In this document: in pieces, positions 23 through 64,000 of the stretch
Layout of the letters: each line of letters begins with the position of its first letter
Position numbering within the stretch: the first letter of the stretch is position 1
Source: Kryptolebias marmoratus
Taxonomy: Eukaryota; Chordata; Actinopteri; Cyprinodontiformes; Rivulidae
Reading direction: 5' to 3'
DNA: 64,000 bases
NCBI RefSeq assembly: GCF_001649575.2
Contig: NC_051449.1
Coordinates: 19,665,432-19,729,431 of the forward strand
Program-made: the position numbers and the translations under genes
The notes under the pieces: generated by a model
Told to the model about the DNA's origin: nothing
Seen by the model: the letters and a program-made list of their open reading frames with translations, nothing else
Databases searched by the model: none

Positions 23-3000
23 CTCATTCTGCAGCTGGCTGACTCTGACAGACAAGTTGAGAACGAGGTGAGTCACGTTCTCTAACTGGCCCTGCAGCAA
101 CTGAATGGATTCAGTCTGACGCAGGTCCTACAGGGAGAGAGACAAAAACAACAACAACCAACTATATTCACTGACATGCTTTGTGGTCAGTTTTCAATTA
201 GCATATATTTATTTATTCTACATTTATCATGTACATCTGTAGTCAGACAGTGGATTTATAGTGCATTTGCTGTTCTGCACAAAGAAAACATAACACTTTA
301 CTAATTCACAACTCTAGTCCCTGGCTGGGCTTTTCAAAGCTATGATGTTATGGCCAAACATTCAAAACTTGGGCTTAAATTCTTAGTAATTTGGTAGCTT
401 GGTAATTTTTACTCTGAACCCATAATTAAAACGTATTGGGGAAAAAAATGAGACAAAAAGCACGCCGCATCTCTGCATGGCAGCTTATCTTTGCTTACCT
501 GCTCCTCTGCTAATCGGGACGTGTTCTGGAGCTTAATGATGGTTTTGTTGAAAGCTCTTTGCATCTCCTCCATCTGCTTCCGATACCTCAAATTAAGAAA
601 AGAAAATTGGAGAAGACTTAAAATCACCCTATACTCAAGAGTTCAAAAACAGAGAACAGTCTCCTCCTGTGTTATTATTTCTAATAAGGCTGCTGATGCT
701 TATTGGCACCCACAACACTAACTGTTCAAGACTCATTTTTTTCCTGATAATTTTTGATTTGCATCTACTCCTGCAGCTTTAAAAAACCCTTCCAAAAAGT
801 ACATCAAAATATGGATCAGGAATAGTGTGAGATGACTTTTGGACACATGGTGTAGACAAAATTAAAAAAAAAAAAAAAACGAAACTATAAAACATTTCCA
901 CATACACAACGATGGAGTTTTGGTGAGAAAAGCCAGCCTGTTTTGGAGTTCTATAGCTCAGACACAGAGCGGTATTGGCACCCTTCAACATTTCTCCAGA
1001 ACGTTTTTAGGCGTGTCACTGTGCCTCACCTCTGGCTGAGCTGCTCCAGGTAGCGCCCGCTGAGCGACATGTTCACCTCCAGAGCCTTGATGCGGTTGTT
1101 GAGTCTCATGAAGACGGACTCTTTCTGGTTGGAACTGTGCATCAGGTTCCCGTTCTGCTCTGTACCATTGAAGGGCTCCGCATAGATGTCTGAGAGGGAT
1201 GGTGAGGTAGGTGAAGAGGCAGTTGGAGGAGAGGGATGAAACAGCTGACCACTGCCGGCTGAGGATGTAGAAAAGTCTTCTGCGTGCTCCTCCGTTATCG
1301 TATCTGTCACAGGCGTGAGGCTGCCAGAGGGCTGAGGCTCTGTGACGGCGTCTGCCACAGAGGGGGATACTTCAGTGGAAGCTGGGATTATTTCAGACAC
1401 GACTGCTGGTTCGGCCTGATCTTCTACAGAAGACGAGGAGGTGGAGGAGAGAACTGGAGCCTGAGGCATCTTCTCTTGGGTCTGGATGGGAACATTTGTT
1501 TCTTTTTCAGGAGCGTCAACATCAGGCTTCTCCTCTGTTGGTGCTGCTGTTGGTTCGTCTGCTGAGACACTGATAGTGGGTTTTACATGAGCAGAGCTGC
1601 TGAGAGAGGCTGAAAGCTCCACATGTTTCTCCTCAGGTGGTGCACCCTGGCTCTTTTCTGGCTCCAACGTCTTTGCTGGTTCCTCAGAAGACAGCTTTGG
1701 TGTTTCCACAACAGGGGTGGGTTCGATGAAGGACGATTCAGTCAAACTAGGTTTGGGAAGGTTCAAGCTCTGACTGGGCTCCAGCACAGTGAGCTCAGAT
1801 ACAGATCCCTCTGCGTTCCCTGAAGGCTGCCCCGTTTCTGATATGACTGCTTCACTCTCTGGCTCCTGCTCAGAGGCTTGTTCTTTTTCATGGGGTTGAT
1901 TCACCTCAGCGTCGTGTGGCTGAAGCTGCGGCTGAGGGCAAGATGAAGGGAGCGCGGGTAAGGGCCAGGTGGGTGTCAGGATGGTAGGGATGATATTAAG
2001 CGTTCTGTCTATTGTTTGGCATGACCTCTTTTTGGATAGCGAGGCTGAACACTGCTGCTGAACAAACTCCTGGAAGGAAGCTGCACATGAGCACAAAGAA
2101 GAAGAAAATGGAGGGCAGCATTTGAGGTCGTCTTGATGTCGCTCATGATGATCCTTTGCGTGTCTGTCTTCATCCACCTCCTCTTTGTCCAGGAGAGTGA
2201 TTGTAGAGCCAATTGGTTGTTCTTCATCCTTCTCTAGCGGGATGACTAGTTTCTCCTCCTCTGGGGGGAGCTCCTGTTCACATTTATCAGTAGTTTGTGT
2301 TTCTGACTCAGCTGTCTCAGTTGGAGAAGAAACCTGCACATCTTCAGTGTCTAGACTGAAGGGAAACGAGAACAATGTTAGATACGATAAAAGAAGACCA
2401 CGTGATAAACATTAAAAGTTAAAGCACTCCCGTCAACTGTCCCAACCAACCAGAACGTCAGAAAATCTTCCAACCCAGGTCAGCAAAGCTAGTTGCATCA
2501 AACCCAAAAAGACTCAAAGCAGGAACTGCTGCCAAAGGTGCTTCATCTCAAGACTAAGTAATGTGATATTTCAGCTTTTTATCTTCATTAAAATTATAAA
2601 AAACATATAAAAATATATTCTCACTTTGTCAATATGGAGTACTGGGTGTAGATTAATGAAAACAATAAAGATTTTAAACAATCGTGACATCTTACTACAA
2701 CCTACTAAATTGAAAAAAGTAAAGGAGGTCTAAAAACGTTTTGAAGCCAATGAATTTCACCAAAGCTTGTTGGGTGTGTAAAAAAAAAAAAAAAGCCGTA
2801 CTCACACTGCAGTGAGGTTAGTTGTGACAATCTTAGTGGTGGTTTCAGGTTGTTGTGATGGCTCAGTGAAGTTCCCTTCTTGCGATGAGAGGTTGCCTTA
2901 AAATGAGAAGGAAACATTAGTAAGAATGAGCTGTAAACATTGTTTAATTACATCCTTTATCAACACTGGGTGACCCACCGCACACCAGTACACTGTATAT

Positions 3001-6000
3001 TACTAATAAATAATTTACAGTAGTTAGGAAAATAGCAGCGAGTGTCTTGTTCATACCAGAGTTTCCCCCGAGAACATTGACAGCAATATTGTTCACCATG
3101 TTCAAAATGGCATCTGAAGAAAAAATGCAAACAACAAAGTCACAAGTTAATAGATCACTAACCTGGATATAGGATAAATGTGCTCATCTTAAACATAAAA
3201 TATATATTCATTAAAAAATGTATTCAATTAAAGACCTGTTGCTGATCCAATCAGATTATTGGATTCCCCAGGTGAAACTCCAGGGGGATAATCTGCAGAT
3301 TATTAAACACATTCAAGGTTTTCATAACTACACAAAAATATCCATCTGGTAATAAAACTAAGAACTAAATTTAGAAAACAATCATAATACAGATAACTGG
3401 AACAATTGTATGTTTATGACGTACGTCGTCTTTGAAGTCTGATTCAAAGGGTGCATCAGGTTGTTTCGACAAAAAAAGGAACTGGAGGACTGAAAGTACA
3501 GTTCTGTCTCACCTGGGTCGTCATCCTGATCATCTGGTCTCTCTGAAGGATCAGCAAACTCCTCGTACTCTGCCATCATACTTGTGCCAAACACTCTGAC
3601 AAAAACAAGCCCGGTCAATTTACTGTTGTAAGATAAGATCTACAAAACTCACTTCATCTGTAACTCAGTTTATTTATATGGCACCACCTCAGGGCGCTGT
3701 ACAAAAACAATCATGTACATTGTAAAAAGCTATTTAGTAAATGTTATCTATCTGAGGAAGCCAGCAGATTGTGTTGAATCTTCCCTTTGTCTCAATCTCC
3801 CATCCTGAGCAGCATGATGGCAACAATGGAAAAGAAAAAAACTCCCTTTTAACAGGAAGAAACCTCCAGCAGAACCGGAACCAAAACCAGGTTTTCAAAC
3901 TAAAACCTGGTAATGTGTCATGTGATTTGCATGTTAAAAAGATATTTCAGATTTTTGAAGTGAGGTTCTGTGGAAAGGTTATCAATATATCACCTGTTGT
4001 ATATAGCTCTTGATTGACCTCAGTTTGGAGGAACAGAGTTAAATTCTGACTGGACTGATGAGCTAATGGCTAAAGAGGCCAAAACCAACTTCAACAAGGC
4101 CAAAAGCAACTCAAATCTCAAACACGTCATAGCAGTTCTTGCAAACGCTGTATTATAAACCTTTATGCCACAGTCAATTTATGCATTATGTGGATTTTTT
4201 CAAAAGGTATCATAATAATCCTGCTGAAAAGACAATAGGAATGCAAAATTGGCAGCAGGTTAAAGGTTTATAGATCACATAAATCATAATAAAATTTTTG
4301 AAATTCAAGGAGCTTTAAGATGGCAAATTCTAACTACCGTATTTTATGGACTATAAGGCGCACTTATATGACAAAAGTTCAGAAATGGACCATTCATTGA
4401 CAGTGCCTCTTAAAATCCAGTGAGCCCCGCTCAGAATAGCTGTTTGCTCATCAATTTGGTCAGAATTGAGCTCCATTTCACAAAAATAAATCTGCTTTTT
4501 TAAATTTTCTTGTCTGTTACATACCTTATGAGACTAAGAGGACAGAAATGTTCAGAGCCAAAGTGAGAGAGCAGTTCCACCTGAAAAATACAGACATGTA
4601 AATTGTGACTAGATTAGATTAAAATGTGAAAAATCCTACAACCAACACCCCTACTTTGAGTAGCACTTTTAAACAGGACACAGTGGATTTCGTATTGCAC
4701 ACAGGAACCAAACACCGATGAACAGACTGTCAGTGAGTTACTGTGTGAGTCATTAAGACAGAAGCAAATCAGAAGTTAATCGTGTGACAGAATGAGCTCC
4801 ATTTTGTGAATGAGTGATCATATGTATGAGATTTCAAATGTTCTTAAAGTGAATGTCTCAACATGAGAGTTGTGTTCAGGAATCTTGGTTAGATCCGATC
4901 AGGTTACATGATTAGTGTGCGAGGACAGAAGTCACAAATATGTTTTCGTTCATCCGACCACAGAGCACTACAAGAAGAGCAGGCTAACCTTTATGTACTT
5001 GGTGAACATCTGAAGCAAGGCAAAAAGAAGGGGAAAAAAGAGAGAGAAATTACAGATACAAGCATGCATTCAAAACAAGGACTGAACAGAGAATACTGAT
5101 TTAATCTGAATCCTTTCAGATGAAATTGTGTCACCATCTGGGCCGAGCTGCACTGCTGGTTTTATTCACAGCAATGAACATTATAAATAACACTAATAAC
5201 TGAGACAGGACAGTCTAATGACAACTCATATACAAACAGGTTGTAGTAGCTATTTAAAAACAATAAAATAGAAGGACTCAAACGTTTCATTCACGGGGAT
5301 TAAAAAGGAAAAGAAAACTCCCTGACTGGGTTAAAGGTTAAGCAGTCTACACCAGCGGAGAACACAGACTACAGTTTAACTAATAAAAACTAAATATTGG
5401 GCTCACCTTCACATATTTGGCATAAAGTTGCTCGTCTAAAGGGAAGCTCTGGACTGTGCGTTCATCCCTGGCATGAAAGGTTCCCAGTTTAAGCCACTTA
5501 TTTGTTGGGTATCTGAAAAATGTCATTTCATGCAACACAGTCAGTTCAGTGATATGAACACTGGGAAAATCATACATATTGAGGTCTACGGAAAAAACAC
5601 AGGCTGCGTCACTTAAATGTGATACCATCAAAATGTCTCTACTAGGATTTGTTACTTCTTATTTATTAAAAAATAACGCTATTACATGGTGATACATCTT
5701 GTTTTTATAGCCTTTTAGAAGATATACAGTAGGACAGTGAGTTGTAAAATGCAACAAAACAGCGAATGAAAAGGGGAGTGACAACTTTTGCTACCTAATT
5801 TTTAAATACTACTTATAGTACTACGTCAAAATGGTGGCGTTTCAGTGTTTACCTATCACTGATGGAGACAAGAAAGTCTTTAGGAGTGGACGAAAAAAGC
5901 TCAAAATTAGCAATGTCCAGCTGCTTCACCTGGATGGGCTCACAGAGCTCAATAATAAACCTGAACAACACGGAAACAGGATTAAAAGAATGCCCTTCAC

Positions 6001-50587: not shown

Positions 50588-52790
50588 CTAATGTTTCCAG
50601 TCTGCAGTCCAGAGTCCGGCGTAGGCCTGGTCCAGGCTCTCTCTCAGCCGCAGGAGCAGCGGGTCCTGCAGGCAGTCCCAGGACACCCAGAACTGTTCCA
50701 CCAGGCTGTACTGGCAGTATCCCATGGCCAAACCAAAGGCCACATCCGTCACGTAGTGTCGGGCCAGCAGCAGCCGGGACAGGCTCACCAGGACGGCCCA
50801 GCCCACCACCAGGACCCGCGTGGAGGCCGTGTCCGCCAGCTGGGCGAGGAAGAAGCGGGCGCACAAGGCCGCCCTGGACGCGTGGCCCGAGGGGAAGGAG
50901 TACCGCTCCACGAAGAAGGCCGACAGGATGTCAGAGCGGTTTGGAGCGGGCGTTCGGCGCCTAACCAGAGTCTTCACGGTTCTGACCAGCAGCAGGTCCA
51001 GAATCAGAGCTTGAAGGAGGAAAGAGGCACATGAAACACGGCTCAAGCTCAGTCTCCTTCTGGGGTTTAAACACTTTTCTATTTGTGACAAGGTTTATCA
51101 CATTAAAACAAGACAATCTTAAATATTATCTCACGTAATATCACAAGGTCTCATGCTATCTGTAAAAGCTCAGAATATGTGTTGGCTTGGGGGTGACTCT
51201 CAGCTACTATCACACAAAATTTTATATTAACTTCTGCAACACTGACTGACTAATTGCCGTTTTAGTGTTTACTGAGGTCAATTAGCTGTGGTGGCCAACT
51301 TAAATTGGGTTGGCTCCAAAAGTAGGACATCCCATGGTAACTTTCTTAAAGTTTTTTTTAAATCTGTCCTCTGGTTCATGAAATATTTTGCTAACAGACA
51401 GATGCACAAGCAGGCAAAAATGTCATTGTCCACTTTTTGAGCCCACCAGAACACTTTTGTTTTCAGCTTAGTGATCATTTATAGGGCCACAATGACAACA
51501 CGTTTTTTTTAAAGCTGTTATTTGTTGCTTGATATATTTTCACAAACTATTGAAAATTATTTATTAGCCATAACTTTAAAATGAATAAAAAATAATGTAA
51601 TATTTCTTAAAACTGCTTTATAAACTAAGTAGTATTAAAGAGAAACACGATATTCATAAAATGACATCTTTGCTACAAGATATAATGAAGTGTTACAACA
51701 ACCCTAACACTGACCCTTGACCCTGGGGCAGCATTCACTGGGGTTTAATTTTATTCCCCTTGTTGTTGTTGTGGAGCAAGTTGGTTGTGTGTGTGATCAA
51801 ACTGATGCTCTCACACGCGCGCACACACACTGCCTCGTCCTCAGTGGGCTCCAGTGTGCCAAGAATAGCTCTGGTATTTCACCAAAGCACAGCTCTGTAA
51901 TGTAAAGGTACAGGAGTGGGGACCTAAAGAGACCAGGCGACCAAAATAAACTATTCCCGTGTAGAATCATCGTGTTGACTGGATGACAGTCTGATCCTTC
52001 TGCTCCAGCCGCAGCTGTTTGGTTCTCGGTCCTGGCGCACAGAAACAGAACCGGTCCCTTGTTGTGTCCCTACGGGACCTGGACGGTCTGACGCGGCTCC
52101 AGACTGGTGGTCTGTGTCAGTAGCCATTAGATTTGCTCAGCTCGGAGCGGACGGAAACGGCGCGCCACAATGACTGACAAATCTCTCACTTTGGTTTTGG
52201 CACAGTCGTGCGTAAAAACGCACCAGCTGTTTTCCGGCCTGGCGCACCAACAGCATCCACCTAAATGACACCAGGCTGAAAGGTCATTGAAATTGTTAAA
52301 TTAATGAAGCTGTAATAAGTTTTCTGAATTACACATAATTATTTACTGTAAATTAATATTTAAGCTACAAAAAAACTAAGCAGACGTGTGCAGATGAACT
52401 CAGAGGACACTTTGTCTCACCCAGGCTCAGATTCAGCATGACCTCCTGCTCCGCCGCGCTCTCCCCGCGGAGCAGGGTGTACACGGTCCCGACGAGCCAG
52501 GGGACCACATGTCCCGAGAACTCCACCAGCCGAACCAGGGGCCGAATGCTGCCCCACGACGACTCCTCGCACGCGCACACCCCGAGCCGCTTGGACAGCC
52601 ACAGATCCACGGCCAGCAGGAACCGGAGCGCGATGGCGAGCATGGGCTGGTTGAGACTCACGGAGAAGTCCTCGGGAGAGAAGTACGGACAGCTGGCGGC
52701 CCGGCGGCGGCCCGGGTGCGCCTCAGACGGTGCCCGGCTTCCACACACCACCGCTCGGCAGCTGTTCCGTCTGCTCGCCGCTAAGGACAT
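50588..52790 (-). CDS. plpp6: Polyisoprenoid diphosphate/phosphate phosphohydrolase (PLPP6-like)
   Basis: Membrane PAP2-family phosphatase. Mammalian PLPP6 dephosphorylates presqualene and other isoprenoid diphosphates at the ER/nuclear envelope. Two exons: 52421-52790 and 50588-51009, phase 1, 263 residues. Exon 1 has a basic N-terminus, then [40 protein letters not shown]. Exon 2 has the catalytic motifs: C1 [10 protein letters not shown]2 [14 protein letters not shown]3 [16 protein letters not shown] distinguishes it from PLPP7 (PAGH). In C1 the family Arg-Pro is Thr-Pro (codon ACG). ATG 52790 sits in a good context (GAGAAGATGTCC); an in-frame ATG at 52898 is the alternative. Human PLPP6 is intronless as I recall it; here there is a 1.4-kb intron. 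Confidence 0.88.
51010..52420 (-). other. plpp6-like intron
   Basis: Holds a family C repeat (51160-51440) and, in its 5' part (51950-52260), GC-richer sequence with words such as 'ggacggaaacggcgcgccac' that may belong to a regulatory element. No further exon was recognised. Confidence 0.5.
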
Positions 52791-53742
52791 CTTCTCTTGG
52801 ACAGAGCGTCCTCGGTGATCCGTCCGCGTCTCTGTAGGGAGCTCGTGAACCCCGCTGCGCTCAGACGGAGGACATCCTGCAAACGGGTCCCTGCACACTG
52901 GAGCTGCAGGGTCACAGGCTCAGAACCGGACTCCTCTCCTCACGTGACTGGGAGAGAACTTTTTCTGCCAAACACTTTTATAGGTTTATTTCTCTTTGTC
53001 TGTAAGCAATGATAATAATAATGAATAACACACACTTCGGCATGATTGGTAGAGATTCTGTCTCGAATGAGGTGTTGGAACCACACAAACATCTGAACCA
53101 AACCAGCTGTTTCTGTGCCTGCAGGTCTAATAACGAACCCAAATCAATTTAGAGCTAGTCTCAAAACCTGAGTTTGGCTGGAAAGCTATAATGAGGATGT
53201 CATGAATTGTAAATTGTCTGTTTCTTTTTTAAAATACTGCTTGGAATGTTAAAAAGCAGCATTCAGGTTACATCACACTGAAGTTGTCGGTGCACAATGA
53301 AACAAAAAGTAGCTAAAAGTAGAACAAAGAGAACAATGTTTTTTAAAGATTTAAAGACATCTCAATGTGGTGGAAATATCTGTGAGTAAAGTTAATCTTT
53401 TGAAAAGTACAAGAGTTACAAAAATGAAAATAATATTACCATAGATGAGCACAATGTTTTGACAGCTAAAATAGCACAAATTGCTTAAAAACTACACAAA
53501 ACATTTGAAAACTGAAAACTATAGAGTGACTGTCAATTAAGCATAAACAAAATGTACAATTTCTAATGCAAAGAAACAGCAGCATGAAGAGTAGCCACCA
53601 CGGTGTGCATGTAAAATGTGTTTTATCAGTGTTTCAATCAACCTGTGGTATAAGTGTGTGTGGGTGTGTGTTTCAGAAAGCACTTTCCACCCCACCTCTC
53701 TGTGTCTCTGCCAGTTGTCAGAGCAGCTGCTGAACACACAGA
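52791..53742. promoter_or_regulatory. Divergent intergenic region plpp6 / prdx6
   Basis: About 0.95 kb separates the start codons of plpp6 (minus) and the first prdx6 (plus). The plpp6 side (52791-52950) is GC-rich. The prdx6 side carries a 5' UTR-like segment ending 'cagttgtcagagcagctgct' that has a counterpart upstream of the second prdx6 copy ('ctgtcagtcgtcagacctgc'). A shared bidirectional promoter is possible but not demonstrated. Confidence 0.4.
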
Positions 53743-56700
53743 ATGTCAGGACTGCTGCTGGGAGATATATTCCCTGACTTTGAGGCGGAGACCACCGTTG
53801 GGAGAATTAAATTCTATGAATATCTTGGTGATTCGTGAGTATGCTTGTTGATTATTGGCAAAAAAGGCAAATTCACATTGAGACTACAGTTAAAAGAAAA
53901 AAAGAGTGAGCTTAAGGGTTATTTTTTGGCCTTAAGGCCCCTAATATATCTGATTCTGAGGAGTGCCAAGCTCCAGTCCTTGGGGGCCACTATCCTCCAA
54001 GGTGTCCTTGTCTCTCTGCTCTAACACACATGATTCAAGTCAATGAATTACTTCATCAGCAGGTCACCAACTTCTGCAAAAGCCAGTTAATAAGCCATTC
54101 TTTTAGATCAGGCATGCTGAAACAGGAGCATATCTAAAACAAGGAAAATGGTGGCCTGCTATATTACGAGAGAAGATTTTAAAGATTTTTAAACTGCTTG
54201 TAGAACCATTTTTGGCAATCATACATTTTTGAAACTCCAATCCGTTTCTCACATTACAGTGGATGTTTTTTATTTCATTTGTTTTTACATTGATGTGCAG
54301 GCAAAATCAGAAAAAAAAACCCTGATCTCACCTGACAAGCAGATTAAAAATCAAGCAATCAGGCACGCGTAGGCGTGCAGACACAAAATATCAAACGAAA
54401 ACAGCTTACAGATCAATAAACAGATAAACTGCCGCTGTGGCTGGGCTCACTGTCCTGTGGCAAGACTCCATTTGGGATAAACTTCAGCTGTCAGACAGAC
54501 TTATGCGCTAGAATACTTTCATATATGAAAGATTTTGCGGTTCACACAATGAGTGCAAGGTGCTCAGGTCTTGCAGCTGCAAAACAAGCCCAAACCATCA
54601 CACCTCTTCCACTGTGCTGACAGCTGATATGAGGTGTTTTGCTGATATTCTGTGTTTGAACCTTTCTAATTGTGCTTCTGTGCGTTATGCCCAAACATCT
54701 CAACCTTGGCCTGTCCAAAGAGCATCGTTCCTGAAGTCTTCTAGCTCATTTTGACCAAGATTCAGTTATAAGATGAGCAGAGTTTATCTGTAAGTCTGTG
54801 TGACACCAGAAACATATTAGCATTGAAAGCATTAGCAAACTGGACAAATGGCAGACCTAAAGAAGTCTTGACCACAGAGAAGCCTCGCACAATCACACTG
54901 CCAAGCTCAAAAGATTAACATAAAGCACCCGTGACAATGTTCTGGCAACTTTACAATGACAAAACAGGTCACATCCTGTCAATTTGGTGTCAGATTCTTA
55001 TCAGAGACCATTAACCCAACAAGCATTTACACGCTTGATGTTAGGAAGTGATTGTCTTCATCTCATGAGTGGGCACTGAGCAGGAAAGAAACCTGGTCAC
55101 AAAATACCCAAACCCATGTCTCTTACAGATGGGGAATTCTCTTCTCTCACCCCAAAGACTACACTCCAGTGTGCACCACAGAGCTGGGTCGGGTTGTCAG
55201 ACTGAACAGTGAGTTCAGCAAACGCAACGTCAAATTAATTGCCCTGTCGATCGACTGCTTGGAGGACCACCATGGCTGGAGCAAGGTGATCTTAATGCAT
55301 TCCTATTGATTTATTTCTGTCTGCAGAATTTGGTTTTCCATCTATATCAATGAACGAAAGTAGCCGTGTTAACGTTAAATCCATCAGTGAGAAAATATGC
55401 TTTACTCTTTGAAATAATTAATTATAGACATTTTGATTGGAAAACTGCATGTTTCCACATCCAGAGGAGCCAATTGAGGTGGTTGGGGCATCTGGTAAGG
55501 ATGTCTCCAAGGTAGATGTTCTGGTCATGTCCAACTGGGAGGAGACCCCGGGAGGACCCAGGACACGCTGGAGAGACTATGTCTCTTGGCTGGCCTGGGA
55601 ATGCCTTGGAATTCTCCTGGAAGAGCTGGAGGAGGTGGCTGAGGAAAGATGTTTGGGCTTCCCTGCTCAAGCTGCTGCCTCCATGACCCGACTCCAGAAT
55701 GAGCAGCAGATAATGGATAGATGTAACTGCATGTTTCATCCATTTTTGATATATTGTAAAGTTATGACCTGAAAAACTTATGTTTGATTGCACTTCATAG
55801 CAGAGTATGTTTAAGTTGCAATTATCAAAGCCATTAAGAGATGAAGTGATCATATCACAAAGTATTATTCTGCTAACAAACAGTAAGATATTTGTTAGGA
55901 CCTGACTTATTTGGCATATTCTGAACGTCCACTCAGACATTACAGATTGACACACAACAACACACACAAGCAACATTTTTAAAAACACTTCAGAGGACAA
56001 ACTAAACTCAGTATTTAAAAATACAACTCTACACTTGACAAATTCGAAGTTGTGTTTGTGATGTTGTGACCTTCTATAGCATATAATATACCGCCACAAA
56101 AGACAATTTCTTGTTTAGGTTCTTTTTTTTTGGAAAATCCACCACAGGTCTCGTCCCAGTGTGTCTCACCTTTTATATTGTGACACCTCTCTCTCTGATT
56201 AGGACATCCTGGCTTACAACTGTGAGGATTATGAGAGCTGCGCACTGCCCTTTCCCATCATAGCAGACAGAAACCGCGAGCTGGCAGTCAGCCTGGGCAT
56301 GATGGACCCTGATGTACGAGACGAGAATGACCTGCCTCTTACTGCTCGCTGCGTGAGTATCACAACGACCCTGTTCACACTGGATGATGACCTGATCATA
56401 ACAGAGCGAGTTTGGGAGAACCTCCTTCAGTGGGAAGGCAATCATGGCGCTGGTACACTCTTAACATTCTCAAAATAGGTTTTCCTGCTATTTTCTGCAC
56501 CCCCAAAATGTTCTCCTGCATCCTCACCATGGCCTATATGTCAGCAGCGCATTGCCACATCAATGCTATACCCACGATCGCACCACGCTCTAAGCTCCAC
56601 CCTAACAGGACTCAGTCAGAGCACTCTAAGATGCAGCTATGAACTAGAAGATCATGCCACTCTAGTACGGCACATACAGTCATGGGTATCTGCACTAGGT

Positions 56701-57750
56701 TGTTTGCATGACCTTGTCATGATCTACAGAATTATTGTGTGTATATATATATATATAATATAGGTTCTTGGGCATTCAACATCAGTTTCAGCCTTACTGT
56801 GGAGCAAAAAAAAAAAACAATTCAGCAGCATGAGAACCTCGACCACATTCATTCTTCTTCCAGCCAAGAGTGTTGTAACAACTTCCTTAGAGGACTGCCA
56901 ATGCAATGTGAGAACAACGGGGTTATGGCCTAGGCAAAAGGCTGGAGTAGCCAGTCAGGCTTCAAATTCTCAATGACCAAACATCATAGGTGCAAATGAG
57001 CTACATGTCATGGCTACGCTGCGACCACATTTCCCCACCCAGGACCCTGATACTCTGCTACCACGACGATAAACCTCCACAACCCTGCTACAGAAGTTCT
57101 GTCCATGCTCAAAACCCACTGCTAATGAGGGGCCACCTGCACTTTTAATCTGCATCTAAAAACCTTGCCAAGACCCTGCAACATCCATCCATGCCCTGGC
57201 TGTTTGTATTTTTTAAAATGTCATAGTGGGATTTTCATTCTGTGTAAAGGGAGCTTACTGTGATTCACTTTTAAACTTGTTCCACTGAAACCTATAAATA
57301 TCAAACAATGAGTCTTCTAAGTTTCCACCCTATTTTTCATTCTTGTGTAGGTGTTCCTCATTGGTCCTGACAAAACGCTGAAACTCTCCCTGCTGTATCC
57401 GGACCCTACGGGACGCAGCTTTGATGAAATCCTGCGAGTGGTTGACTCCCTCCAGCTTACAAATATGATACAAGTAAACACCCCTGCCGACTGGAAGGTA
57501 GGTCCAGCATTTGAGGGTGACTTCAGCTGGCAGTCCTGCAGCTGTCTGCACAGATTAAAGAAACAAGAGTTGACCTGTGGCACCTTAAAAGTGTCCCGAT
57601 TCTGTTTCACAGCCTGGAGACAATGTGATTGTGCCTTCCAGCATGTCTGAGGACGAGGCTGCATCTTTGTTCCCAGCTGGGGTCCACACCAAAGAACTGC
57701 CCTCTGGCAAGACTTATCTCCGCTTCACGCCGCAACCACAAATCCAGTAA
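53743..57750 (+). CDS. prdx6: Peroxiredoxin 6, upstream tandem copy
   Basis: 1-Cys peroxiredoxin that reduces H2O2 and phospholipid hydroperoxides; vertebrate PRDX6 also has calcium-independent phospholipase A2 activity. Five exons: 53743-53834, 55129-55285, 56203-56352, 57351-57497, 57613-57750. They total 684 bases, 227 residues, phases consistent, close to the usual 224. The peroxidatic Cys is in DYTPVCTTELGR (human Cys47). The lipase nucleophile motif GDSWG is present (human Ser32). The residue matching human His26 is Tyr25 (KFYEYLGDSWG, codon TAT), so phospholipase function is doubtful. GPDKTLKLSLLYP keeps the Asp region of the triad, and the C-terminal 1-Cys domain ends LPSGKTYLRFTPQPQ. 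Extra Cys residues occur in SIDCLEDHHGWSK and ESCALPFP. Confidence 0.95.
53835..55128 (+). other. prdx6 copy 1 intron 1 with antisense Tc1 remnant
   Basis: 54545-54770 is the reverse complement of a Tc1-like transposase segment ('gtgctgatatgaggtgtttt'-like block, 'gcccaaacatctcaaccttg', 'tgtccaaagagcatcgttcc'), heavily decayed. The last ~55 bases before exon 2 ('actgagcaggaaagaaacct', 'tgtctcttacag') are homologous to the same place in the second copy. Confidence 0.6.
55445..55735 (+). mobile_element. Rex3-like LINE 3' end
   Basis: Frame 55437-55772 includes GPRTRWRDYVSWLAWECLGI then EELEEVAEERCLGFPAQAAA, the characteristic C-terminus of Rex3/RTE-type fish LINE proteins, followed by an imperfect GATA/GATG tail ('gataatggatagatg'). 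It lies within intron 2 of prdx6 copy 1 and is not a host gene. Confidence 0.85.
56353..57350 (+). other. prdx6 copy 1 intron 3
   Basis: A 1-kb intron with a TA-repeat (56741-56759) and a C-poor, weakly structured sequence at 56860-57180 that may be old repeat material. No gene was recognised. Confidence 0.5.
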
Positions 57751-58319
57751 GCGTGCAAGGATCCTTAATATTCAGACTGAACCAAAATCCAGACCTTCTA
57801 AGTCCTGAAGGTCCTGCTCATCTTCCTCTGGAGCAGAAAGTCCAGTCCAGCTGGCAGACAGATCAGAAACAGACTTAACGTACACAATAATTTTTAGTCA
57901 TTTAGACATTTTACTGTAGCACAGGGAGGCTGAACTAGGGATAAAAACATTGAAATATAAAGTGTTTTTCGTTTTCTGTGTTATATTATAAAAGGTTTTT
58001 TTTTTAATCTGAATTCGCTGATGTTGATTTTTAATGTCTTGTGGTTCGATAATTCACTTGTGTCAAACGACAAATATATATATAATTAAATATAATTCAT
58101 ATAAAGTACTGAACTTGAAGTAGCTTCGTTTTGACTTCCAGACACAACTGTCTGAAGCATTAAGTCAGCTGTAAAGGATTTGCTGTTCTTTTGAACCCGG
58201 TCGATCTGCATCAACGAAGAGCTTATCGACTCTGATCCTGGGATTGAGCGTCAAAGAACAGCAGAGGTGATCCAAACAGGAAAAGGAAGGAGACGAATAT
58301 GCTACTAACAGTCAGTGGG

Positions 58320-58615
58320 AGGTTCGATTACACCAGTATGCCACATGTCAAAGTGTTCTTGGGCAAGACACTCAACCCCTCACTGCCTCCAATATGTGCC
58401 CCATCTGTGTATGAATGTGATCTAAAACACCGATTAGGCTCTATAGAATGATTTATTCAGATCAGCTTTGTAGATATTTGTAGAGACTCAATGGAGTGCT
58501 GTATGAATGTGCGTGTGGATGGATAAATGAAGGCACACATTGTGTTGTAAAGCACTTTGAGTGGCCTGGTTGGTTAGAAAGGCACTATAAAATACAGTAT
58601 ATTTACCATTAAACA
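58320..58615. repeat. Interspersed fish repeat between the prdx6 copies
   Basis: Shows 'gttcttgggcaagacactca' 'acccctcactgcctcc' at the left and 'gtaaagcactttgagtggcc' 'gcactataaaatacagtata' at the right, the layout of a very common fish dispersed repeat. It is in the intergenic space of the tandem pair. Confidence 0.7.
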
Positions 58616-58796
58616 CGTCCAGTCAGAGTTCCTGATTTCAGTTTCTGAACGGAGACAATCATAGCTTGTGTGGGCATTTCAGAGTTAACTTCCCACCCTT
58701 TGTCTCTTTCTCTCTCTGTCTCTCTCTCTTTGCGTCTCTCTGGCTGTCAGTCGTCAGACCTGCTGCCGAACACGCAACCCCCTCCACTTTCGCAGG

Positions 58797-61700
58797 ATGC
58801 CTGGGCTGCTGCTCGGAGACGTGTTTCCTGATTTTGAGGCAGAGACCACCATTGGGAGGATTAAATTCCATGAATATCTCGGTGATTCGTGAGTAGACTT
58901 GTTGAGAAGCAGAAGAAAATTCACAGACTGATTGAGAATTCAGTTTAAAAGAAGGGAGAGAGATTTGAGGAGTCTGTGCAAGTTTTTTTAAGCACTTCCT
59001 GACTTGTGCTAAATAAAAACCAAGATGAGCTTCACCTATAGGCCTGTTGCCTATAGTTGTGTGAGCTGTTAAAATATTCTTTCAGTGAATAAATTGAGAG
59101 ATGAATGTATTTGTTAGACATTAGATGAACTGTTTGTCATGGGTCTGATGATGTGTTAAAACACAACTTAGTAAGAACCACAAGAGACTTTACAAACTTA
59201 CATCTCTGACCTCTTAAAAAAAATCCCCTCTGTTATCAGTCTGGTAACTTACCAACTACAAACCGTATCCTGTTTTTCTAATGTAAGATTCTTATCAAAG
59301 TCCTTCAACTTCACCAGCCAGCAACACCTTTCAAATACTGACAACTGCAAACCTTTAGAGAAAATCAAATTTAGAGAAAATAAAAAATATTTGTTGATTG
59401 AAAATGAATGAAATATATATATATACACTGCCCATGTGGAAAAATAGGGTGAGCTGGGCGTTTTTTTTTTTTGTATATATACATATAGATATATACATAA
59501 ACAACAACAAAAAAATGTCACCCACTTCAAACGATTTGTTTTACATATGCAGTTCCACTTTCACTTCAAGCTCAGGTCCTCTACCAGAGGCCTGGGAGCT
59601 TGAGGGTTCTCCTCAGTATCTTAGCTGTTTATAGGACTGTGCTCTTCTAGACAGAGATCTCTGAGGTTGTTCCTGGGATCTGTTGGAGCCATTCTTCCAG
59701 TTTGGGGGTCACAGCACCCAGTGCTCCGATGACCACTGGTACAACTGAGGCCTTGATGCTCCACAACTTCTCTATTTCCTCTTTCAGCCCTTGGTATTTC
59801 TCCAGCTTCTCGTTCTCCTTCTTCCTGATGTTACAGTTGGTTGCAATTGCTGCATCTATCACAACTCTGCCTTCTTCTGTATCTTGTCGACCACCATGAT
59901 GTCTGGTTGGTTTGCCATCACCTGTTTGTCACCCTCGATTCCTATTGTGGAAGCCCCACAATACCTTAGCCCTGCAATTCTCCACCACCCTTGGTGGAGT
60001 TTCCCACTTTGACTGTGGGACTTCCAGTCCATACTCAGTACAGATGTTCCTGTACACTAATCCAGTCACTTGTATGGTTTGCCTGCCTGCTTCTTACACC
60101 TTGCTATTATGTGCTGGACTGTCTCAGGAGCATCTTTGCACAGCCTGTATCTTGGGTCCTATCTGGTATGATAGACCTCATTCTCTGCTGCTCTTGTGCT
60201 GCCATAATTCGTGCTTCTGTGCTGTCCTTATAGCCACCGGTAAGAGTAATCAATATCAGCCACTTCCTCAATCTGCCATGCAGTGCAGGGGCTTATCTTT
60301 TTATGATGGTTCCTCTTTTATGAGGAACCATCATATACAATATGGTTTCATTTTATTTCATTACTTTTGTTTTAGCAAACAAATAAAAAAACTCATTATG
60401 CTCAAGATTTACTTTACAAGGGCAACCTGGCCAAAAGGTCAGTAGCATACATCATAAAACAATGATCAAAAACAAGTAGCACTGTAGGATAAAACATAGT
60501 TATTTTACCCACATAAATTATTTCCAAGTTGGCATAATGGTAATTTGGAATTTGGAAATAACTCCATTCTCCATTTCATGTAATATTGTGAAATGTCACA
60601 CTAAAAGTATGTGTTGTGAATGACTCATCTACTACCACACCAAATTTTGGCTCAATAGCTGTAAAACTGGCTGATTTATAGCCATTTTTGTGTTGGCTAA
60701 AATTAATTAGCTGTGGCAGCCATCTTAAATTTGATTGACTCCAAAGGATAATTAATTGTAGGGTACAGCCAATGATTACTTTCTTAATTTTTTTTTATTA
60801 AACCCTTTCCAGCGAGTGGTTCATGAGGTATTCTGGGGACAGATATATGAACACAGACACAGACAAAACAATTATCATCTGCCTTTGCCTTTCAGCGGCA
60901 GGCAATAATGAACAAGGCATGACATATTACAAGCTGTTCTACAGTTATTTAACAAAATAAAGTACAAGCACTTTATGAGTCATCTAGTACAACCTTTCAA
61001 TCAACAGCTTGTACTTTTTTCATGGAATTGCTTCATTTTATTGAGGTTTGTGAGCATTCATTTCTGCACAGCTTTTTAAGATTTCACAGCATTTTAATCA
61101 GGTCGTGGTCAGGTTGCTTTAGCTGTTGCAACACCTTTATTCTGTTTTTTTCAACCATTCTACTGTTGGTTTGCTGCTGTGTTAGGGATCATCGTCCTTT
61201 TGCATGACCTAGTTTCAGACTTCAGCTGTGAGACAGGTGACGTCAGTTCTGACTTTAAATACTTTGACTTAGAGTAGTTCAAGGCTGACTCAATGTCTCA
61301 AGGTGCTCAGGTCTCGTGGCTGCAAAGCAAGCCTAAATCATCAATACTCCACCACCGTGCTTGGCAGTTGATATGATGTGTTTGTGCTGATATATTGTTT
61401 GGTATTTCCAAACATGTCCCTGTGCATTATAGCCAAACAAATCCACTTCGGTCTTTTCTTTCCAAACATTGCTTCAAAAATAGATAGCTAATGTGGAATT
61501 TTACAAACCTAATAATTTCCTAACTGATTGTAAATGATCTTGTAACACTTTCCAGATTGATAGGCAGGAGTAGCTGCTTCTCTGTGATCCTATGATCATA
61601 TAGAGAAGCAATGTCTTAAGATGTCAGCAATGATCATAGGAGCTGGGGGTAAATTTCCACCTTGATACTGCCAACATTTCTGCTTTTATAGAGATTATAG

Positions 61701-63239
61701 AGATAGTTGCTTGGTTTTCAAACTCTTAGGATTCGCCAATCTACTCCAACTTTCACACAACACTTTAAAACTGTGCTTGAGACCCCTTTTTCCTGCTTCA
61801 GTGTGATAAATGATATGACTGAGGAAGAATGGGGGTAGAAACTGATTTACCCTTGATAAACTAGAGGCAAAAAGGAAGGTAGTCACAGTTCAGAGTTGGC
61901 GAGTAGGTGTGAATTGGGATACTGTCAATTGCAAATCGTATCCTGTTATTCTAATGTAAGATTCTTATCAAAGTCCTTCAACTTCACCAGCCAGCAACAA
62001 CTTTCAAATACCGACAACTGCAAACCTATAGAGAAGATTTAAAAAAAATTAGAAATAAATGTAAATATACAGCCCAGTTGGAAAAATAGGGTGAGCTGGG
62101 TGTTTTTTTTTGTACACCCACTTCACTTCACCCACTTCAAACGATTTGTTTTACATATGCAGTTCCACTTTCACTTCAAGCTCGGGTCCTCTACCAGAGG
62201 CCTGGGAGGTGAGGGCTCTGCTCAGTATCTTAGCTGTTCCCAGGACTGTACTCTTCTGGACAGAGATCTCTGAGATTGTTCCTGGGATCTGTTGGGGCCA
62301 CTGGTTCAGCAATGTTGGCTTCATGATTGTAAGCACACATTGTTACAAACTGTAGTCAGTTTGATTGGTTCATATGCAAATTAATATTAGGAATGAGGTC
62401 ATCAGAGGTACAGCACAGGTTGAAGGACTGGGACATAAAGTTAGAGAGGCCAGACTGAGATGGTTTGGACATGTGCAGAGGGGGGACAGTGGGTATATTG
62501 GTAGAAGGATGTTAGAGATGCAGCTGCCAGGAAGAAGACAAAGAGGAGATATCTGGATGCAGTTAGAGAGGATATGGAGGTAGTTGGAGTGAGGACAGAG
62601 GATGCAGAAGACAGAGTTAGATGGAGGAAGATGACTCACTGTGGTGACCACTGAAAAGGGAACAGCCCAAAAGAAAAAGAAGAAGAAGGAAAGCACCTCT
62701 CTGAAACTTATTGCTACTTATCATCCTAATTCTTGTGGAAGCTGTATAAATGTACTTTGTTTTTCTGATGCTGTTTTGCAATTCAGCTCAATTCTTGTGA
62801 AAAAAGACCTGATGTGTTATGCTTCTGAGCTTCTGTGGTGTTAAAAGCATTAGAAACTTCAGCCTAAGGTATAGGCAACTGTTAAAACAACATTGCAGAC
62901 CTCAAGGGGAGAAGTAAATTTCCATTCTGGTATCATATGCATGTTCTGATGCTTTCATCTCTACAAACCAACAACAGAAACAGAAAACAAAGTACCAGTA
63001 ACTGGTAGCCTATATCTAATTAGTGGAAACTGAGTAAAAAGGAAACTAGATCATAAAATCTCTTAAACCGTGTCTCTTACAGATGGGGAATTCTCTTCTC
63101 TCACCCCAAAGACTACACTCCAGTGTGCACCACAGAGCTGGGTCGCGCTGCCAGACTGAGCAGTGAGTTCAGCAAACGCAACGTCAAAATGATGGCCATA
63201 TCCCTTGACAGCTTGGAGGACCACCACGGCTGGAGCAAG
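58797..63239 (+). CDS. prdx6: Peroxiredoxin 6, downstream tandem copy, truncated by window end
   Basis: Same enzyme family as the upstream copy. Only two exons are inside the window: 58797-58888 and 63083-63239, with lengths (92 and 157) and phase identical to copy 1. The protein starts MPGLLLGDVFPDFEAETTIG, RIKFHEYLGDSWGILFSHPK and continues DYTPVCTTELGRAARLSSEF. It keeps both the phospholipase His (KFHEYL, codon CAT) and GDSWG, as well as the peroxidatic Cys, so it looks like the canonical bifunctional form. Exon 1 is about 83% identical to copy 1 by eye. Exon 2 starts with a long identical run (see findings). Exons 3-5 must lie beyond 64000. Confidence 0.93.
59250..60320 (-). mobile_element. 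Fragment of a LINE with restriction-like endonuclease, antisense
   Basis: On the minus strand, broken frames read KENEKLEKYQGLKEEIEKLW, VVPVVIGALGAVTPKLEEWL and QQIPGTTSEIS. Upstream pieces ('tctttgcacagcctgtatct') correspond to a CCHC-type Cys/His motif, and 'ccaccatgatgtctggttgg' to the catalytic PD...D region. This is the C-terminus of an R2/R4-type non-LTR element. Its 3' UTR continues to about 59265. It lies in intron 1 of prdx6 copy 2 and is inactive. Confidence 0.75.
60590..60915. repeat. Family C interspersed repeat
   Basis: Contains 'actaccacaccaaattttgg', 'agccatttttgtgttggcta', 'ttaattgtagggtacagcca' and the end 'ctttcagcggcaggcaataa'. It matches the copies listed at 21425-21720. 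Confidence 0.65.
61160..61495 (-). mobile_element. Tc1-like transposase remnant, antisense
   Basis: The reverse complement of 'ccaccaccgtgcttggcagt', 'tttgtgctgatatattgttt' and 'gcattatagccaaacaaatc' encodes the Tc1 segment around the DDE domain. The same part of the same kind of element, same orientation, occurs at 54545-54770 in intron 1 of the other prdx6 copy. Confidence 0.7.
61935..62310 (-). mobile_element. Second 3' fragment of the same LINE as at 59250
   Basis: Matches 59265-59690 almost base for base over several stretches ('gattcttatcaaagtccttc', 'aaatagggtgagctggg', 'cctctaccagaggcctggga'). It ends at 'ctgggatctgttgg', so it is a shorter 5'-truncated copy in the same orientation. 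Confidence 0.8.
62385..62695 (+). mobile_element. LINE 3' end, RTE-like
   Basis: The frame at 62365-62583 reads HKVREARLRWFGHVQRGDSG then YIGRRMLEMQLPGRRQRGDI, the usual C-terminus of RTE-like elements, followed by 'gaaaagggaacagcccaaaa' and an AAG-rich tail. It lies in intron 1 of prdx6 copy 2. Confidence 0.75.
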
Positions 63240-63424: not shown

Positions 63425-63830
63425 TGTGGTTGACTGTCCATCCATCCATCTTTTATGGTTATCTGCAGAGATAGCAGGTCCAAGAGGAAACCCAAACATA
63501 ACTTTCTCCTGCTCCTTTACTGGAAGACTCAAAGGTGTCCCCAGGCCAGAGATATATGTTCCCTGATGTGAGTTCTGGATCTGGGCGATGGCTTCCCCTA
63601 CACGGAACATGCCCCAAAACCCTCCAGAGACATCCCAGAGGCAACCTACACAAGTAACTGAACCATGTCAGCTGACTCCTTTGGATGTGGCGAAGCAGTG
63701 GCTCTACTTTCTTATCCTCTTTCTATAACTGAGCCTGGCCATCCTACAGAGAATTATCATCTCAGACAGATGTGAAGAGATCTCAGTCTTTCAGTCATGA
63801 TCCATATTTCCTGTCCATAAGTGTTGGAAT
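63425..63830 (-). mobile_element. LINE 3'-end-like sequence, antisense
   Basis: A CCATCCATCC tail leads into sequence whose minus-strand frame reads CRGSHRPDPELTSGNIYLWP, a phrase typical of decayed fish LINE copies. It lies in intron 2 of prdx6 copy 2. Confidence 0.6.
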
Positions 63831-63832
63831 AT

Positions 63833-64000
63833 ACAGGTGCTGGTCATAAAATTAGAATATCATGAAAAAGTAGATTGATTTCAGTAATTCCATTTAAAAA
63901 GTGAAACTTGTATATTATATTCATACATTACATACAAACTCATATATTTCAAATGTTTATTTCGTCTAATTTTGATGATTACAAATGACAACAAATGAAA
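63833..64000. repeat. Terminal part of a common fish DNA-transposon-like repeat
   Basis: Begins 'acaggtgctggtcataaaat' and continues 'attagaatatcatgaaaaag', 'gtgaaacttgtatattatat'. This is a frequent dispersed sequence in fish genomes. The superfamily was not assigned; it runs off the window. Confidence 0.6.

What the first reader, a model, noticed from the sequence alone, without database searches (positions are those of the whole stretch)
53743..63239. Tandem prdx6 copies; upstream copy lost the phospholipase His
Both copies keep the peroxidatic Cys (PVCTTE) and GDSWG. The residue equivalent to human His26, needed for lipid binding and phospholipase A2 activity, is Tyr in the upstream copy (TTC TAT GAA) and His in the downstream one (TTC CAT GAA). 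This predicts a peroxidase-only copy next to a bifunctional copy, a clean case of function splitting by one codon.
Basis: partly seen in the sequence, partly recalled or inferred. Interest (0 to 1): 0.75.

Follow-up and report, generated by a model that had tools for sequence, protein, structure and literature searches.

The report
Fish prdx6 pair, one lipid-site change
A killifish-like genome carries two side-by-side copies of the antioxidant gene prdx6, and the upstream copy has changed a histidine that mammalian Prdx6 needs for lipid work, but that change is one of many in a fast-evolving copy rather than a clean one-codon split.

Summary
Two head-to-tail prdx6 genes lie at 53743-57750 (copy A, 227 aa) and from 58797 on (copy B; exons 1-2 in the window, 3-5 beyond it, 247 aa). 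The residue matching human His26 is Tyr in A and His in B; both keep the peroxidase residues, Ser32, Asp140 and Asp31. Published H26A work shows loss of phospholipase A2 and also of phospholipid-hydroperoxide reduction, with small-peroxide reduction and acyltransferase kept; I saw no assay of a Tyr form. Nor is it a one-codon split: A is the most deviant of 103 compared proteins at conserved sites (16 of 129; B 2), evolves faster than B and seems to have lost a C-terminal tail. Its open frame argues against a dead gene. Three other fish Prdx6 proteins have the Tyr; with A this needs four changes on the tree, so it is repeatedly tolerated. Best reading: a constrained, diverging duplicate with weakened lipid functions. 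A whole-genome search for other copies did not complete.

The parts
53743..57750 (+). prdx6 copy A (upstream), five exons: 53743-53834, 55129-55285, 56203-56352, 57351-57497, 57613-57750; 227 aa
   Evidence: [quoted passage not shown]
53815..53817 (+). copy A codon TAT (Tyr) at the place of human His26
58797..63239 (+). prdx6 copy B (downstream), exons 1-2 (58797-58888, 63083-63239); exons 3-5 lie beyond the window in L004 at 2594-2743, 2856-3002, 3092-3289; 247 aa
   Evidence: [quoted passage not shown]
58869..58871 (+). copy B codon CAT (His) at the place of human His26
55129..55191 (+). copy A's exon 2 part of a 71-base coding stretch identical in A and B (the rest is 53827-53834 in exon 1); it holds Ser32, His39, Thr44, Cys47
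   Evidence: longest identical run 71, next 28; 1 of 20000 random placements as long (placement at random ignores uneven constraint)
57752..57808 (+). untranslated stretch behind copy A's stop that reads ...IQTEPKSRPSKS-stop, aligned with copy B's coding tail ...SQTEPNFEPSQS-stop
   Evidence: alignment of the 3' ends and translation in three frames

Best explanation
This is a head-to-tail tandem duplication of a prdx6-like gene in a killifish-like fish (nearest relative of copy B in the set: the rivulid Austrofundulus). Copy B is the conserved copy with the peroxidase, PLA2 and acyltransferase residues. Copy A is intact and still under constraint but evolves faster; it keeps the peroxidatic Cys47 pocket, Ser32, Asp140 and Asp31, while His26 became Tyr, many conserved sites of exons 3-5 changed and the tail was probably lost. 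Most likely A still reduces H2O2 and short hydroperoxides (and could carry selenide on Cys47), but binds phospholipid poorly, so aiPLA2 and phospholipid-hydroperoxide reduction are lost or much reduced. Shown: gene structures, residues, rate difference, intact frame. Inferred: the biochemistry, from H26A work on mammalian Prdx6.
For: Gene anatomy. Tajima tests, A-only to B-only changes: 29:12 (Nothobranchius), 27:12 (Cyprinodon), 29:11 (Sparus), 32:8 (Channa), 32:8 (Salmo), 28:13 (Fundulus), 26:12 (human), p from 0.023 to 1.5e-4. Conserved sites: A deviates at 16 of 129, B at 2 (one shared); A is the highest of 103 rows. Constraint: dN 0.134, dS 0.46; under unconstrained substitution of 0.23 per site 57 of 5000 simulated frames stay open, 688 of 5000 at 0.10. 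H26A recombinant protein: aiPLA2 at pH 4 104 to 1.0, PCOOH peroxidase 4.94 to 0.38, tBOOH 5.37 to 4.92; LPCAT unaffected, data not shown there (PMC5581854, passages). Copy B with Austrofundulus 96*, 100/96*.
Against: No passage that I read assays His-to-Tyr; Tyr is native in other Prdx6 lineages and in three other fish proteins. PMC11327102 reports no GPX activity for purified PRDX6 and poor expression of H26A (passages); the abstract of PMC6523285 says H26A inactivates the peroxidase while its body says that small peroxides are still reduced. So both 'small-peroxide activity kept' and 'only lipid functions lost' are open. No expression data. Copy A's place in the careful tree is not resolved: A+B alone is 13.75 log units worse but not rejected (p-AU 0.244).
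Confidence: 0.6

Rival explanations
1. Tyr at this position is tolerated: copy A still binds phospholipid and has PLA2 activity, and the change is near-neutral.
For: Tyr is native in P. falciparum, Drosophila and yeast Prdx6 (PMC6466579, passages) and in Fundulus, Xyrichtys and Electrophorus proteins; with copy A that makes 4 changes on the 103-row tree. Wheat PER1 keeps PLA2 with Gly for Ser32.
Against: H26A removes about 99% of aiPLA2 of the recombinant protein; His stands in 158 of 163 fetched homologues, so the site is constrained.
Confidence: 0.25
2. Copy A is on the way to loss: relaxed selection on a redundant duplicate, with no particular division of labour.
For: Acceleration over exons 3-5 (22 A-only against 7 B-only changes with the Cyprinodon outgroup), an early stop before the tail, H26Y; no close A-like protein among the 120 listed homologues (best identity 79%).
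Against: All five exons and splice sites intact, no stop, dN/dS about 0.3; an unconstrained frame would seldom stay open; peroxidase residues untouched.
Confidence: 0.3
3. Copy A is specialised by many changes (new partner, dimer or regulation), and the Tyr is a side effect.
For: 15 of A's 16 deviations at sites conserved in 90% or more lie elsewhere (one, F28Y, is shared with B), among them G126D and M188I, sites invariant in the 101 other rows.
Against: No test for positive selection was run: I had coding DNA for one pair only.
Confidence: 0.25
4. The Tyr is an assembly error or an individual variant.
For: One base (C to T) in one assembly; no reads seen.
Against: The same change stands in three other fish proteins, and A is diverged throughout, as expected of a real old copy.
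Confidence: 0.04

Closest known systems
Vertebrate Prdx6 (1-Cys peroxiredoxin with aiPLA2 and LPCAT activities)
   Same: Full-length similarity to human PRDX6 (copy A); PVCTTE, GDSWG, H39/T44/C47/R132, S32, D140, T177 in both copies, D31 in both
   Different: Copy A has Tyr for His26 and many other changes at conserved sites
Prdx6 proteins with natural Tyr26 (P. falciparum, Drosophila, S. cerevisiae; PMC6466579, passages) or with a changed Ser32 (wheat PER1 with Gly; shrimp PvPrx6 with Lys, PMC13116241, passages)
   Same: A PLA2-triad residue changed while the peroxidase site is kept
   Different: Distant lineages; I did not examine their gene copies. Here the changed copy sits beside an unchanged one
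Teleost prdx6a/prdx6b (Trematomus, Tolomeo et al. 2016, seen only as cited in passages of PMC5126087 and PMC8613830)
   Same: More than one prdx6 in a teleost, with different expression under warming
   Different: I did not see whether those are tandem or what their triads are
H26A Prdx6 mutant and knock-in mouse (PMC5581854, PMC6523285, passages)
   Same: Same residue changed
   Different: Ala, not Tyr; laboratory-made

Membership tests
Prdx6 (1-Cys peroxiredoxin) | PVCTTE with peroxidatic Cys47, plus H39, T44, R132 | tested here: met
   both copies HTCR
[quoted passage not shown]
   both copies over Pfam cut-offs
Prdx6 (1-Cys peroxiredoxin) | Nested among vertebrate Prdx6 in a tree | tested here: met
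   copies A and B among ray-finned fish Prdx6 proteins, human as outgroup
Bifunctional Prdx6 (aiPLA2) | Triad His26-Ser32-Asp140 | tested here: not met
   copy A is Y-S-D; copy B meets it, H-S-D
Bifunctional Prdx6 (aiPLA2) | GxSxG motif and Thr177 | tested here: met
   GDSWG and T177 in both
Bifunctional Prdx6 (aiPLA2) | Measured aiPLA2 activity | not testable with these tools
   needs recombinant protein
Prdx6 LPCAT | Asp31 | tested here: met
   Asp in both copies (sequences); role of D31 from PMC6523285, passages
Subfunctionalised pair | Complementary losses, one in each copy | tested here: not met
   by catalytic residues only A has changed; expression was not testable

The most novel reading that the evidence does not exclude
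The same His26-to-Tyr step has been taken several times in fish Prdx6 (copy A, Fundulus, Xyrichtys, Electrophorus: four changes on a 103-row tree), and herring-like fish lost Ser32 instead, so extra copies repeatedly free Prdx6 to shed its membrane-lipid functions while keeping Cys47 chemistry: a recurrent evolutionary uncoupling of a moonlighting enzyme.
Probability: 0.2. Interest if true: 0.6.

Novelty: new variant of a known kind. Interest (0 to 1): 0.4.

Why it matters
How the activities of Prdx6 share out in vivo, and even whether it has GPX activity, is disputed (PMC11327102, passages). Natural copies that keep Cys47 but change a lipid-site residue, sitting beside an unchanged copy, would let the functions be compared without engineered mutants. 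The repeated appearance of Tyr in separate fish lineages gives natural replicates.

Tried and rejected
A recent one-codon split: rejected, because A is changed throughout. Gene conversion of exon 2 as the reason for the conserved Cys site: suggestive only. Synonymous differences in exon 2 are 3 of 44 same-residue codons against 40 of 132 in the other exons (counts, p 0.001), and a 71-base identical run exists; but fourfold sites alone give p 0.14, exon 5 is also low (4 of 29), and constraint would look alike. Shared origin of the Tyr with Fundulus: 14.42 log units worse, not rejected (p-AU 0.162). Regulatory differences: consensus motifs upstream of A and B showed nothing telling. Downstream ORFs in L004 were listed and not identified. 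Other prdx6 copies in the genome: the three family matches (L001-L003) look like 2-Cys peroxiredoxins by tblastn and reading; the window's own copies were not among those three, so that family search is no census, and the protein search did not complete. Structure prediction was not run, because it would not decide activity.

Limits: the 103 tree rows are copies A and B, human, and 100 of the first 136 fetched proteins, chosen by hand for taxon spread; 36 of the 136 were left out (near-duplicates, further birds, reptiles and 221-residue fish proteins, and odd or composite models), among them some with changed triads (P0090, P0108, P0121, P0129, P0134). The 27 proteins added were counted for residues but not put in the tree. 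Conserved sites and Tajima tests rest on the same rows. Residue 26 was left in the tree columns. The database lists are capped at 120 and are 90% clusters.

Full report
What is there. The window lies in a 680.65 Mb genome in 300 contigs. Two prdx6 genes stand head to tail on the + strand, start codons 5,054 bases apart. Copy A is complete in the window: five exons, GT-AG introns, 227 residues. Copy B starts at 58797 and runs out of the window after exon 2; exons 3-5 were read from the same contig (L004) after a run of N, giving 247 residues, with a GC donor in intron 4. [quoted passage not shown]

The residue. Aligned to human PRDX6, copy A reads Y26 S32 D140 and copy B H26 S32 D140; both read H39 T44 C47 R132 and T177, and both keep D31. 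It is a single C-to-T difference, CAT against TAT.

Not one codon. A and B differ at 51 of 227 residues. At the 129 sites where one residue is shared by at least 90% of 101 other rows, A deviates at 16, B at 2, and A is the most deviant of 103 rows, the next having 11. Tajima tests give 27-32 A-only changes against 8-12 B-only with Nothobranchius, Cyprinodon, Sparus, Channa and Salmo as outgroups, 28:13 with Fundulus and 26:12 with human (Austrofundulus gives 41:5 but groups with B, so it is no outgroup). With Cyprinodon as outgroup, exons 3-5 hold 22 A-only and 7 B-only changes, exon 2 holds 3 and 5. So the Cys47/Ser32 region is spared and the rest has drifted. The C-terminal tail of copy B (ending ...SQTEPNFEPSQS) has SQTEP counterparts in the Fundulus, Ataeniobius, Characodon and Nothobranchius proteins; the Austrofundulus and Cyprinodon tails are of like length but have no SQTEP. 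Copy A stops early, yet the DNA behind its stop, in another frame, still reads IQTEPKSRPSKS-stop: most simply the remnant of a lost tail. That would make the duplication no older than the tail. The opposite, that A never had the tail, is not excluded.

Still a gene. Between the copies dN is 0.134 and dS 0.46 by NG86, 0.137 and 0.43 by YN00. In a simulation of unconstrained substitutions on A (no indels), 688 of 5000 frames stayed open at 0.10 changes per site, 269 at 0.15, 57 at 0.23 and 23 at 0.30. So A has probably been under selection, though weaker than B. Expression is unknown.

Kinship. In the 103-row quick tree copy B pairs with Austrofundulus limnaeus (96*), and A falls in an open fork with them and Nothobranchius (support 85). 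In a careful 35-row tree A's place is unresolved, and grouping A with B, with B and Austrofundulus, or with those and Nothobranchius is not rejected (p-AU 0.244, 0.423, 0.486). Austrofundulus is a rivulid killifish. No close A-like protein was among the 120 listed relatives of A (best identity 79%); as copy B too has no match above 89%, this says little.

How common is the Tyr. Among 163 fetched homologues, position 26 is His in 158, Tyr in 4 (Fundulus P0005, Xyrichtys P0008, Electrophorus P0058 and a firefly protein P0121) and a gap in 1. On the 103-row tree the four Tyr rows, copy A included, need four changes. Xyrichtys also has a second prdx6 with His (P0152). Ser32 is changed in 9 of 163, five of them one group of herring-like fish proteins; Asp140 in 4 of 163 counting one gap. 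The peroxidase residues depart in 3 of 163: P0041 (gap at H39), P0071 (R132 to P) and P0080 (C47 to S). So the lipid site is the looser of the two, as PMC6466579 says for Prdx6 more widely (passages).

What it should do. In recombinant H26A Prdx6, aiPLA2 at pH 4 falls from 104 to 1.0, phosphatidylcholine-hydroperoxide reduction from 4.94 to 0.38, and tBOOH reduction only from 5.37 to 4.92; LPCAT was unaffected in lungs and cells, data not shown there (PMC5581854, passages; also PMC6523285, passages, whose abstract, unlike its body, says that H26A inactivates the peroxidase). The step from Ala to Tyr is inference. Tyr-bearing Prdx6 enzymes were named but not tested in PMC6466579. PMC11327102 found no GPX activity in purified PRDX6, poor expression of H26A, and a Cys47 selenide-carrier role (passages).

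In print. In the listings of my searches of the open library (searches list 20 of 600, 20 of 88 and 30 of 31 papers) I saw no report of a fish tandem prdx6 pair with a changed triad; subscription papers are mostly not held. Two prdx6 genes in an Antarctic fish are known (Tolomeo et al. 2016, seen only as cited).

Verdict. Observation confirmed; interpretation partly supported. An ordinary duplicate in kind, with a testable loss of lipid functions; the repeated Tyr in fish is the more interesting thread.

Noticed in passing
P0080 (Arapaima gigas prdx6-like): The mirror image: peroxidatic Cys47 reads Ser while the PLA2 triad residues are intact. One database protein, so an error is possible.
   Followed up: partly
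P0061, P0069, P0070, P0072, P0093 (herring-like fishes; group name recalled): Ser32, the proposed PLA2 nucleophile, is Cys, Gln or Arg in these five prdx6-like proteins, which form one group in the tree.
   Followed up: partly
163 fetched homologues, human position 31: Asp31, reported as needed for LPCAT activity, is Asp in 108 of 163, Asn in 31, Ser in 15, others in 9; at least 13 changes on the 103-row tree.
   Followed up: partly
L004 3003 (copy B intron 4): GC donor (gcaggt) where copy A has GT (gtaggt).
   Followed up: no
window 50588-51091 and 52365-52898, - strand: A PAP2-superfamily ORF (Pfam; plpp6-like by recall) lies head to head with copy A. The second ORF, whose upper end is 844 bases before A's start codon, has no Pfam match and is tied to it by recall only.
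   Followed up: partly
window about 63830-64000 and L004 33-1382 with about 150 bases after it: A run of N between copy B exons 2 and 3 is flanked by inverted copies of one sequence (seen by eye), like the ends of a mobile element.
   Followed up: no
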